Assembly: GCA_001466705.2 (NCBI GenBank)
Contig: LATX02000187.1
Coordinates: 558,001-622,000, forward strand
Direction of reading: 5' to 3'
Origin: Moniliophthora roreri
Lineage: Eukaryota > Basidiomycota > Agaricomycetes > Agaricales > Marasmiaceae
DNA length: 64,000 bases
Under the pieces are notes generated by a model. It searched no databases, was not told where the DNA came from, and saw nothing but the letters and a program-made list of their open reading frames with translations. Of the stretch, positions 12,820 to 16,333 are shown one piece after another. The first letter of the stretch is position 1, and the number at the start of each line of letters is the position of its first letter. A program made the translations under genes and the position numbers.

Positions 12820-15800
12820 TCAAGGCGTAATGGCAGTGAAACTCACGATAGGTTTGTCACTTGAGAGCTAAAGGTGAAATCATTGAGCAATAACAGCAGA
12901 AGCAGTCTAATTCTGCTCACCTGTGGATCCTGGAAATTGTTCATTTCTAGCCCCTTGGTATCACCGTCTGGTGGTCGCTTCCGTCCTTTCCTCAGCCTCC
13001 ACCTCTCTCTCGCTCTCTTATATGCTTTGGTTCCTTGGTGCATTTGGAGTGATCCGTCGTGTATTGTGTGACTATGATCCCAAGCAGTGTTTAGCGTACA
13101 ATGTCAAATCAAATCCTACTCACCTCACTTTGAGCATTAGATCCTTAAATGTCGGATGAGGATCTTCCCCTGTGAGCGGATCGGTTACTACCACGAAACA
13201 CGATAACCGCAAACCGAAGACTCACTCAGAAGCTGTACCAAGGCCTGTGAAATCGACGTTTCATCCCACGCAACCTGATTATCTTCACATGCGCTCAATG
13301 AAATAACATCTCCATGTTCCGGCTGCAACATCCTGATCCTAGTCCTCATTTCAAGATCACGACAGAATCCATCACAGAACTCTTCAATGGGCTCGGACAT
13401 TATAGGACCTCCAAGCCACGACTCTGGATTGAAAATGGACGGGCTCGCTCCGACGAACTGTTGTCTGTCGATCCCAAACGTTCGGCTTTCAACACCTATG
13501 TCGGAATAGTTATCACGTCCACGAACAACAGGTGAAGCAGACTCCGAACTGTTCAGTCCAGACTCCCGATACGATGCAGTGGGCGATGGCGGGTGGTCCA
13601 AGAGCCCAGCCAAGAAGTCTTGAGGCGGTATACGGGATATATCGGTATCGTGTTCTGTCTGGTAGATGCTGGCGAGTGCTGCTTGCCGGCGTACTAGAGC
13701 CTCGACTGAGTACGGCAATAGACGGAATAAACGACGGCATCACTTACCATTGACATTCCACAAGGAGTCGCTCTGCCTTCGGCCTTTGGATATCCATGGG
13801 ACGTAGACTCGGTTGCAACGGAAGTGCTTGAGATCTTGGTAGGGCAGATGGATGTCAAATTGTGAACAAAAATTTTTGATCAGAGTGACTGACTCAGTAA
13901 AGTCGCCGAATGGCACGAGTCTAAAATAGCCTGGATGTAAAATGAGCTGGTTACTACAGGTTCTGAATGAAGTCACTTACGACGAGCTGGGCCCCTATAG
14001 GAAGTGGGTCAACAAGAATGGAGCTCCTGACGTCGACATATCAGTCCGAGTAGATAGCTGGTCAAGAAGGGACATATACATCGTCCTTAATCAGGTTATC
14101 GTCATCCGATTCTCCGGTAGAATCGCAGGGAACAAGGCCTGCAGGTCCATGGGTATAAGGTACCTTTGAGGAGCGGGCTCACGTACAGTTGTTCCAGCCA
14201 GTCTCTTTCCTGCTGCCCTGATCCCGTACTTGAGTAGCAAAGCCGGTGTCTGTCCATGTGACGTTGAAAATCGTACGTGGGTGAAAAACGTGAGCCTCAC
14301 AATGGAAGACGAACCGATCACCAGCCACCGCATCCTTGATCAGGTTGTGCATTTCAATGAGCTAACAAGCAATTAACTTTATAAAAATCAATGAGACAGT
14401 ATCAGGATGCTGACTATGTTATCCCTTGTTGGCTGCTTCTGGTTCGGATGCTTGGTTTCCGATAACATTATTATGTCGTCCGGATGATAGCCATATTTCT
14501 CTATTAAACCATTTGTCAGTAACGCACAGGCCAACATGCGGCGCACGCACCGATAAGCAAATTCTTCATTGCCGTAACATCCTTGTGTGGCCCCTTCAAT
14601 ATGCCATCACCGTTTACTGACTCTTGCCCAGTCAAATGACCCGAAACCCCGATGAGGAGCGCTCTTTTCTTTGGCTTCGCAGGCATGACAACGTTGGTAG
14701 TATCAGAGATGTTCGGGCACTGGAGCTGCTTGCCAATATTCTTCATGTCGACACGAAGAGAAAGTGGGTTGAAGATATTTGTGCTTCTAGCGCGAGGGTC
14801 CAAGTATATGCTGAGTGACTGGCGCAGGGATGGATCAGATGATAGATAGCCGCTATTTCTTGATGAGAGCAGCATACGTAAATATTGCTCTATCTTTCTA
14901 GCGCTGGGTCGTTCCATTGGATCCTGGGCCCAACACAGTTGTACCATACTCCACATTTCGTCAGGACACCATCCAACTGTCGGCCTCGCGGGGCGCTTTC
15001 CTTGAACTACTTGCAACATGACCGCAGATTCAAGAGTCCCACAAAACGGTGGTTTTCCTGTCATTATCTGGATCAACTATAGTAAGCAGCATAGAGTCGA
15101 AGTACTGATGGGACTTACCTCGAGAACGGTGCATGCAAATGCATAGATATCCCGAGCAGACTCGTCCTTCCCAGCAGCGTCCCCAGTTGCAGTACGTAGG
15201 GACAATTCAGGGAACAATTCAGGTGCCATCCATCGGACAGAACCCGCGACAGTACTTCCTCCTGCGCTATTGAACCACTGAGTGATAGTACTTGTGCTCT
15301 TGACTCCAGCTAGGCCGAAGTCCGCTAATCGACAATTCAAATGGTCGTCCACCAGTATGTTGGACTTCACGATTATCATCAGAAGCCGATCAGAATGTCG
15401 AAATCTGAAGAAATGTACTAACGCCTTTGATGTCATTATGGATGACCATTGGGGTACGACCATGAAGGTAGGCCAGACCTGAAGCTATCTGGAATGTCTG
15501 CATAATGCTGTCAGTATAAGAACCGTGACATTTCCCTCGCTTTTCACGAACCGATTTCAGTCTATCGTGGTCAGGGTTCCGTTCCAAAAATGAGACTATA
15601 TCACCGTTCGACATCCAGGGAAATACGAGACAAAGACTGGGTGCTGGGAATAAGTCGGAGTTGATGACCAATAATGGTATTACATTCCGATGATTCAACT
15701 GCGTGCATAGGAAGACTTCGTGACAGAAATCCTAAGGGATTAAAAATCTGTCAATGACGACGGAAGTGACAGTATGTCGGACATAGCAAACGATACTCAC

Positions 15801-16333
15801 TGCATACACCTTATCCTGCTTCTCTTGATCATCCCTGGAATATACGCGCAAGACCTTCAGGCAAACCGGCCGACCAGAGATGTTTCCTTTAAAGATATCC
15901 TGCGTAGTCATGAGTGTAGATACTGGGTAGATAAACACATATAGCCTACAGCAAAACCTCCGCCAGCTAGCGGATATATTCCTTCCTGTGTAATGTTGTT
16001 TAAGGAAAGAGAGCCCGGTAAGATACGGTGTTTCTTTGCTAGCACACCGAGAGCTGCAAAGCACTGCTGTATTCGATAGTGATCAAGTGACAACTTTGAG
16101 CTTCGCACTGCCTATACGATCACAAAAAAATGAGCAACGTAAGTAACTATACTGGAGATACGCACTGATTGAAGGAGCTGCACAACGGAGGGAACAGATG
16201 CGGCATCTAGGTAGAGAAGACAGTTGAGCGCTTCTGGAGGCTCGAGTTCCAGGAATGCACGAAGATCTTCCGAAGTCTCCAACCTGCAAGGTGTATCCTG
16301 CGTCCACCAGATCAGGTTTGGCATATTGGGCAT
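12820..16333 (-). CDS. Protein kinase-metacaspase (C14) fusion, probably degenerate
   Basis: Eighteen exons can be traced by GT..AG introns of 42-69 bp, from the chosen start at 16333 (MPNMPNLIW) to the stop at 12820-12822; about 870 codons. Kinase domain: glycine loop GGGFAD, lysine in VCLKVLR, catalytic HNDIKG, LADFGLAG, MAPEL and C-lobe W..D.W.M...CW. All key residues are present, in a tyrosine-kinase-like style. The same exon (15076-14551) runs without a break into PKKRALLIGVSG...LKGPHKDV, the metacaspase N-terminus, so this is one fused gene. The caspase fold continues with EKYGYHPDDI, VFHYTGFATQV, LVPCDS, ILVDPLP, AILDSCHSATL, CNRVYVPWISKGRR and VISLSACEDNQ, ending in MNNFQDPQ. The nucleophile (DSCHS) is kept, but the catalytic histidine of Y-S-G-H-G is phenylalanine (YTGFA). 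At the intron near 14027-14079 the frames do not join (one base too many or two too few), suggesting decay or sequence error. Confidence 0.78.

What the first reader, a model, noticed from the sequence alone, without database searches (positions are those of the whole stretch)
12820..16333. Kinase-metacaspase fusion with the catalytic histidine replaced
One exon (15076-14551) carries the kinase C-lobe and, in the same frame, the metacaspase start RALLIGVSG, so two signalling domains sit in one polypeptide. The kinase keeps its lysine, HND and DFG. The metacaspase keeps the cysteine motif DSCHS, but Y-S-G-H-G reads YTGFA. An active kinase with a pseudo-protease (or one formerly kinase-gated) is an attractive cell-death or allorecognition module. 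I am not aware of it as a described architecture, though the pairing may exist in databases.
Basis: partly seen in the sequence, partly recalled or inferred. Interest (0 to 1): 0.9.

Follow-up and report, generated by a model that had tools for sequence, protein, structure and literature searches.

The report
Fungal kinase fused to dead metacaspase
In a cacao-infecting mushroom relative, a signalling kinase gene has merged with a neighbouring cell-death-type protease gene whose active site is lost, one of three such fusions seen here that all have a damaged protease active site.

Summary
On the minus strand, 16333-12766, a 19-exon model joins a TKL-type kinase (PF07714, 4e-37) to a metacaspase (PF00656, 4e-21) in one frame. 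The annotated protein Moror_8651 (Moniliophthora roreri MCA 2997) maps letter for letter onto this window. The caspase half is a copy of a standalone gene like M. roreri pca1, with its introns and old start codon. Beyond His->Phe (two base changes), 9 of 16 conserved residues in the 24-residue active-site stretch have changed, and a 5-nt shorter exon 12 breaks the ancestral frame; the annotation steps round it and lacks 15 residues that pca1 has. The kinase half keeps its catalytic motifs. So this is a kinase with a dead, eroding pseudo-metacaspase tail. Two further kinase-caspase fusions exist (M. roreri contig C125; Marasmius fiardii); each lacks one catalytic residue, while 64 of 67 unfused fungal relatives keep both. 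Trees suggest at least two independent fusions, from a neighbourhood where such kinases and caspases lie close together. Whether the dead tail regulates active metacaspases or is decaying is open. No support for allorecognition. The protein is in databases; I found no paper describing the pairing.

The parts
15950..16333 (-). exons 1-2 (16333-16166, 16111-15950): start codon, N-terminal helical region and start of the kinase (Gly-rich loop)
   Evidence: region shared with other family kinases
15119..15899 (-). exons 3-6 (15899-15801, 15731-15552, 15497-15423, 15364-15119): kinase with Lys125, Glu148, HND, Asn230, DFG, APE
   Evidence: PF07714 residues 104-373
14551..15067 (-). exon 7: end of kinase C-lobe, 44-codon linker, old caspase start MKNIGK, first strand of the caspase (KKRALLIGV); the exon that makes the fusion
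14301..14500 (-). exons 8-9 (14500-14415, 14361-14301): caspase p20 part up to ...FVFH
   Evidence: same lengths (86, 61) as pca1
14187..14249 (-). exon 10: YTGFATQ, Phe (TTT) at the catalytic His position (CAT in both paralogs), conserved acid cluster lost
13981..14138 (-). exon 11 (14138-14080) and ancestral exon 12 (14026-13981): exon 12 is 5 nt shorter than in the two paralogs and breaks the frame; the annotated model P0001 uses 13986-13981 only
13748..13930 (-). exons 13-14 (13930-13894, 13834-13748): DSCHS cysteine motif and the family motif RCNRVYVPW
12766..13693 (-). exons 15-19 (13693-13226, 13169-13124, 13071-12921, 12867-12847, 12792-12766): variable loop, p10-like part (DVISLSACEDNQVAW), tail and stop

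Best explanation
A gene fusion in the Moniliophthora lineage: a TKL-type kinase gene lost its stop and the spacer behind it and ran into a complete metacaspase gene of the pca1 kind. Such genes lie near one another in a kinase-caspase cluster (contig C102 of this genome). Shown: one frame across both domains, the embedded old start, shared introns, lost catalytic histidine and surrounding acid cluster, intact kinase motifs, frame break. Inferred: the product is a working kinase whose metacaspase tail cannot cleave; the tail was held under selection for most of its history and is now loosely constrained, at most a binding surface for the kinase, and is decaying. The kinase output is the most likely remaining function.
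For: One frame, no in-frame stop apart from the exon 11/12 break; both Pfam domains; same protein annotated from strain MCA 2997; caspase exons of 86, 61, 63, 59, 37, 87, 46, 151, 21 and 24 coding nt equal those of pca1; linker holds MKNIGK like pca1's start MKIIGK (E 2e-5 against a set of three sequences). Dead protease: His codon CAT->TTT; 9 of 16 conserved residues changed in the 24 from HYTGF against 34 of 167 elsewhere (p 0.003). Loosened but long kept: branch dN about 0.20, dS about 0.81 (ratio 0.25) against 0.13 for pca1 (my arithmetic from the pairs); conserved columns changed 46 of 183 against 9 of 209; neutral change of 0.1 per site left no stop in only 1 of 300 trials. Kinase less affected: 5 of 69 conserved columns changed. 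Much of the modelled caspase half is confident and matches metacaspases.
Against: No transcript was seen; splicing and translation of the fusion are inferred. The kinase half also has the largest share of changed conserved columns of the 18 kinases compared (7.2%, others 0-6.8%), so it may be relaxing too. The frame break could mean that only the kinase plus half a caspase is made. The neutral trials start from pca1, and part of the branch may predate the fusion. In the model the stretch around the Cys strand (571-600) has pLDDT of only 46-53.
Confidence: 0.6

Rival explanations
1. Kept pseudo-protease: the fusion is a working regulator in which the dead metacaspase half binds substrates or active metacaspases such as pca1, as cFLIP does beside caspase-8 in animals (recalled), and the kinase half signals.
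For: 3 of 3 kinase fusions lack a catalytic residue (window His->Phe; C125 His->Cys with the DTCHS motif readable in the DNA; M. fiardii DSCHS->DCTHS) against 3 of 67 unfused fungal relatives; average dN/dS about 0.25 on the branch; caspase half modelled with pLDDT 84-96 at residues 441-450 and 471-540.
Against: 46 of 183 conserved columns changed, nearly the rate at variable columns (60 of 209); frame break at exon 12; low confidence around the Cys strand; C125 has a broken kinase exon. Losing activity is also what decay looks like.
Confidence: 0.25
2. Pseudogene in full: the locus is a duplicate on its way out and makes no useful protein.
For: Frame break in this assembly, and an MCA 2997 annotation that fits it; long caspase branch (0.64 against 0.072 for pca1); sister fusion on C125 has two frame shifts in its kinase activation segment; the kinase has the highest share of changed conserved columns of 18.
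Against: 18 intact introns, no in-frame stop in the kinase or downstream of the break, kinase motifs kept, pairwise dN/dS of the kinase half against C125 about 0.20 (0.231/1.158 over 294 codons).
Confidence: 0.12
3. Two genes: a kinase and a caspase starting at MKNIGK, with the fusion an artefact of gene prediction.
For: pca1 starts at the matching place (MKIIGK); unfused kinase and caspase genes lie near each other elsewhere.
Against: No stop in frame between the domains; only 44 codons of linker; in the C125 sister the same kind of exon runs through and the Met is gone (KEKNIGKW), with a linker related to the window's; chance of both linkers staying open without selection at the synonymous divergence is 0.04-0.07 by simulation, which is suggestive only.
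Confidence: 0.03

Closest known systems
Fungal type I metacaspases (MEROPS C14B, name recalled; Candida glabrata and yeast Mca1/Yca1, PDB 7qp0, 4f6o)
   Same: Sequence, p20 strands and p10-like end; the pca1 paralog matches 7qp0 at 5e-29, and the model of the fusion finds the same structures
   Different: No catalytic His, acid cluster after it lost, segment before the Cys strand lost or out of frame, kinase in front
Expanded TKL and TK-like kinases of Agaricomycetes (PMC2838846 passages; PMC3937382 passages)
   Same: PF07714 kinase with the catalytic motifs; part of a large family in this genome (142 exon matches, a lower bound); solved relatives by sequence include CTR1 and RIPK1
   Different: The word caspase does not occur in the main text of either paper
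Fungal gasdermin-controlling proteases (S8 or CHAT) fused to repeats or kinase-like domains (PMC12881547, section 20 read)
   Same: Protease and kinase-like domains joined in one fungal protein; small signalling clusters
   Different: There the protease is CHAT or S8; here it is a C14 metacaspase without its dyad, and gasdermins were not searched for
Pseudo-orthocaspases of bacteria (PMC6426788, passages)
   Same: Caspase-fold proteins with the His-Cys dyad replaced, Phe-Ser among the dyads listed
   Different: Bacterial orthocaspases without p10; no eukaryotic kinase in front
Animal cFLIP / caspase-8 with RIPK1 (recalled)
   Same: Working analogy only: RIPK-type kinase beside a dead caspase
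   Different: Separate animal proteins with death-effector domains, none found here

Membership tests
TKL/TK-like protein kinase (PF07714) | Kinase fold with Lys, Glu, HxD, Asn, DFG, APE | tested here: met
   PF07714 4.3e-37 over 104-373; motifs in the sequence
TKL/TK-like protein kinase (PF07714) | Phosphorylates a substrate | not testable with these tools
   needs a bench assay
Active metacaspase (C14B) | Catalytic His-Cys dyad | tested here: not met
   Phe at the His column, Cys kept; codon TTT
Active metacaspase (C14B) | Conserved acid residues after the His (role in the S1 pocket recalled) | tested here: not met
   EEDGMDE reads KETGWNN
Metacaspase homolog | p20 and p10-like parts recognisable | tested here: met
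   PF00656 3.6e-21 over 444-807; Foldseek hits to 6w8r, 7qp0
Fungal NLR | NACHT or NB-ARC in the same chain | tested here: not met
   only three Pfam families in the protein
Gasdermin-controlling CHAT/S8 protease | CHAT or S8 domain | tested here: not met
   not among the Pfam hits
Gasdermin-controlling CHAT/S8 protease | Gasdermin gene next door | not tested
   the flanks were not searched for gasdermins
cFLIP-like pseudo-caspase regulator | Binds and controls an active caspase | not testable with these tools
   needs binding data

The most novel reading that the evidence does not exclude
In Marasmiaceae, TKL kinases and metacaspases form a genomic partnership that has fused more than once; on fusing, the protease loses its catalytic dyad and becomes a built-in pseudo-metacaspase that steers the kinase or restrains the active standalone metacaspases, a one-chain fungal counterpart to the RIPK-caspase-8-cFLIP node of animals.
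Probability: 0.18. Interest if true: 0.75.

Novelty: new variant of a known kind. Interest (0 to 1): 0.45.

Why it matters
Upstream control of fungal metacaspases is poorly known (my judgement). A fusion of a kinase and a metacaspase, and neighbouring unfused pairs, suggest which kinases act with which caspases (the gene-fusion argument), and fused copies with dead proteases are natural controls. If the dead tail is kept, it would be a fungal pseudo-caspase regulator; if not, it is a clear case of a fusion decaying domain by domain.

Tried and rejected
Exon 11/12: I tried all three frames after the break and an alternative donor that skips exon 11; the skip happens to keep frame but drops an exon conserved in pca1 and typeII, and the deposited model has a 6-nt exon instead. 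A search for more fusions with the two-row profile A2 listed no new PF00656+kinase protein in the best 120 of 708, but it also failed to list P0013 (one of its own two rows), P0002 and P0003, so its recall is poor and absence means little. The kinase search listed the best 120 of 949. The deposited P0112 model lacks the kinase exon with DFG and does not read the Cys exon in the caspase frame; the DNA shows both. Per-branch rates for the kinase half could not be had, because one pairwise dS was undefined; only the pairwise ratio is used. Alignment A3, mixing kinase-only and caspase-only rows, looked misaligned and was dropped. Alignment A5 was made and not used. The kinase half of the AlphaFold model is poor (3 of 36 rows are kinase fusions; pLDDT mostly under 60 over residues 81-340), so no structural claim is made for it. 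The flanking repeat (10914-11071 and 16669-16827) was checked as a possible mobile element; the genome search found it only on this contig (3 places).

Full report
WHAT IS THERE. The window lies in contig C89 (698,367 bp) of a 59.4-Mb fungal assembly. The protein read from it matches, letter for letter over 852 residues when spliced at GT-AG sites, the annotated protein Moror_8651 of Moniliophthora roreri MCA 2997, whose contig is 99,530 bp long. Contig C102 of the window's assembly has the same length, 499,417 bp, as the contig recorded for other M. roreri proteins (P0002, P0004). So the organism is M. roreri (Marasmiaceae), in an assembly other than that of MCA 2997. On the minus strand a 19-exon gene runs 16333-12766. 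Pfam finds PF07714 (4.3e-37, residues 104-373) and PF00656 (3.6e-21, 444-807) in one chain. Exon 7 (15067-14551) holds the kinase end, a 44-codon linker and the caspase start.

HOW THE FUSION AROSE. The caspase half is nearest to the standalone M. roreri metacaspase pca1 (P0002, 55% identity). From its second exon on, its coding exon lengths equal those of pca1 except for the long variable exon and exon 12. The linker ends in MKNIGK, the counterpart of pca1's own start MKIIGK. So a whole caspase gene, start codon included, sits behind the kinase. On contig C102, pca1 (373613-375804 +) lies behind a kinase remnant in the same direction (371.3-372.2 kb, catalytic middle missing); further kinase matches lie at 367-368, 386-393 and 421-423 kb, two short caspase-like genes at 376 and 378 kb, and a second caspase, typeII, at 418.6-416.4 kb. 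In other species the printed locus tags put family kinases near these caspases. Of the 5 unfused caspases of the window's caspase clade (11 rows) whose names carry serial tags, 3 have a kinase within two numbers (V5O48_007590/007589, E1B28_005410/005408, AAF712_012976/012978); the other 2 are 10 and 11 numbers away (VNI00_009364/009374; PM082_011116/011127, the latter kinase from a distant clade). Against this, of 5 tagged caspases of the sister clade whose species also have tagged kinases (P0015, P0021, P0024, P0025, P0026), none has a listed kinase within 200 numbers. I read these by eye from lists capped at 120; it is not a census.

THE PROTEASE IS DEAD. The His codon CAT of pca1 and typeII is TTT here, two base changes, and the MCA 2997 protein has the same Phe, so a sequencing slip is unlikely. 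In the 24 residues from HYTGF, 9 of 16 columns that are invariant in six relatives have changed, against 34 of 167 elsewhere (p 0.003); the run EEDGMDE has become KETGWNN. Exon 12 is 46 nt against 51 nt in both paralogs, so ordinary splicing breaks the frame; the annotation keeps frame with a 6-nt exon at 13986-13981, 15 residues short of pca1. Yet the coding frame after the break, down to 12766, holds no stop.

SELECTION. Against pca1 and typeII (411 codons) the window branch has, by my arithmetic from the NG86 pairs, dN about 0.20 and dS about 0.81 (ratio 0.25); pca1 0.13; typeII 0.63. In 300 trials of neutral change at 0.1 per site, 1 kept the pca1 frame free of stops; at 0.2 or more, none. 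So the caspase half was protected for most of that branch. But 46 of 183 columns conserved in six relatives have changed (25%), nearly the share at variable columns (60 of 209, 29%). On the same test typeII shows 27 of 193 and the M. fiardii fusion 19 of 195; pca1 (9 of 209) and P0003 (13 of 213) were tested against the other five relatives (a slightly different alignment gave 43 of 187 for the window). In the kinase half 5 of 69 conserved columns have changed, the highest share of 18 kinases (others 0-6.8%), none of them in a catalytic motif. Together this reads as long use followed by loosening, strongest in the protease.

OTHER FUSIONS. One search gave 104 proteins; the 69 with fungal names were used, and the other 35 (unnamed, or Nitrospira) were left out. 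Of the 69, two are kinase+caspase: P0001 and P0013 of Marasmius fiardii. A third, P0112 of M. roreri, turned up in the kinase search with a caspase half that Pfam does not call; in this genome it is C125:246853-249754. There an exon of the same kind (248057-248710) runs from kinase to caspase, with a linker related to the window's (E 2e-5 in a three-sequence comparison in which the M. fiardii linker gave no hit), but the caspase core is of a short type found standalone at C102:376 and 378 kb; those read SGH, the fused one SGC, with DTCHS readable in the DNA. Its kinase exon has two frame shifts in the activation segment. P0013 keeps the His but reads DCTHS for DSCHS. Of the 69, 64 keep both His and Cys (a protein with several copies was counted as keeping a residue if one copy did); the five that do not are P0001, P0013, P0052 (also Phe at the His), P0054 and P0064. 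So 2 of 2 fusions against 3 of 67 unfused lack a residue (Fisher 0.004; with P0112, 3 of 3, 0.0004). Numbers are small, P0112 was found by another search, and the gene models of P0054 and P0013 look imperfect.

ONE FUSION OR SEVERAL. In the caspase tree (61 of 69; 8 dropped because their matched span reached 700 residues or more) the window protein groups with the Moniliophthora and Paramarasmius caspases (100/97) and P0013 with the unfused M. fiardii P0005 (98/90). In the kinase tree (111 of 121; P0112 and 9 others dropped for short coverage; quick method) P0013 goes with a kinase on a contig of the same length (93) inside a Marasmius clade (99), and the window kinase falls in an unresolved group of 11 (80), otherwise Moniliophthora, Paramarasmius and one unnamed row. 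Two independent fusions are the simplest reading; one old fusion with later gene conversion is not excluded.

STRUCTURE. AlphaFold on 36 rows gave pLDDT 84-96 at residues 441-450 and 471-540 and 81-93 at 761-820, but only 46-53 at 571-600 around the Cys strand, and a poor kinase (mean 57.6, pTM 0.42). Foldseek's best PDB hits are metacaspases (6w8r, 7qp0, 4f6p; E 2e-9 to 6e-8) and then kinases. By sequence the kinase is nearest CTR1 and RIPK1 among solved structures.

WHAT IS KNOWN. Ten searches of open full text showed me no paper on a kinase-metacaspase fusion in fungi; I opened only passages of nine papers. Fungal kinase surveys report a large TKL group in Laccaria (PMC2838846, passages) and an Agaricomycete-rich kinase lineage (PMC3937382, passages), neither with the word caspase in the main text. 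A survey of fungal NLRs lists a kinase among N-terminal domains; the passages I saw name no C14 caspase (PMC4986451). The nearest statement is in a 2025 review: fungal CHAT or S8 proteases that control gasdermins can be fused to kinase-like domains (PMC12881547, section 20 read). The protein itself is not new to databases.

VERDICT. A fusion of a kinase and a disarmed metacaspase, one of at least three in Marasmiaceae. The best-supported mechanism is a kinase with a proteolytically dead, loosening tail; a kept regulatory pseudo-caspase is possible (about one in four); allorecognition is conjecture.

Noticed in passing
window 1781-4096 (+): A NACHT/NPHP3_N NTPase protein (PF24883 3e-26, PF05729 5e-9 in 1781-3457), i.e. 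an NLR-type gene or part of one, about 8.7 kb from the end of the fusion gene.
   Followed up: partly
window 34180-35683, 36255-37703, 42614-44098 (-); look-alikes at 16973-18302 and 21500-22549 (+): A local family of F-box-like genes and fragments, alike by eye; of three stretches scanned, two gave weak F-box hits (E 1e-4 and 7e-4) and one none.
   Followed up: partly
window 8682-8981 and 10178-10477; 9199-9378 and 10733-10912: Two direct repeats (300 nt at 100%, 180 nt at 96%) 1.5 kb apart in an AT-rich stretch: probably a recent tandem duplication.
   Followed up: no
window 10914-11071 and 16669-16827, plus 5156-5214: A repeat on both sides of the fusion gene, 84-90% alike, found only on this contig.
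   Followed up: partly
G000 C125:246853-249754 (L030): A second kinase-caspase fusion with SGC for SGH and two frame shifts in its kinase activation segment.
   Followed up: yes
G000 C102:416376-418624 (L023): The standalone caspase typeII (P0004) evolves fast (branch dN/dS about 0.6 by my arithmetic) although its dyad is intact.
   Followed up: partly
protein P0052 (Favolaschia claudopus): An unfused metacaspase with Phe at the catalytic His as well (SGFSTQ).
   Followed up: no
proteins: The kinase family carries many different extra domains by precomputed Pfam accession (for example PF00621, PF00503, PF00501, PF00169, PF00790, PF20415), so caspase is one of many partners.
   Followed up: no
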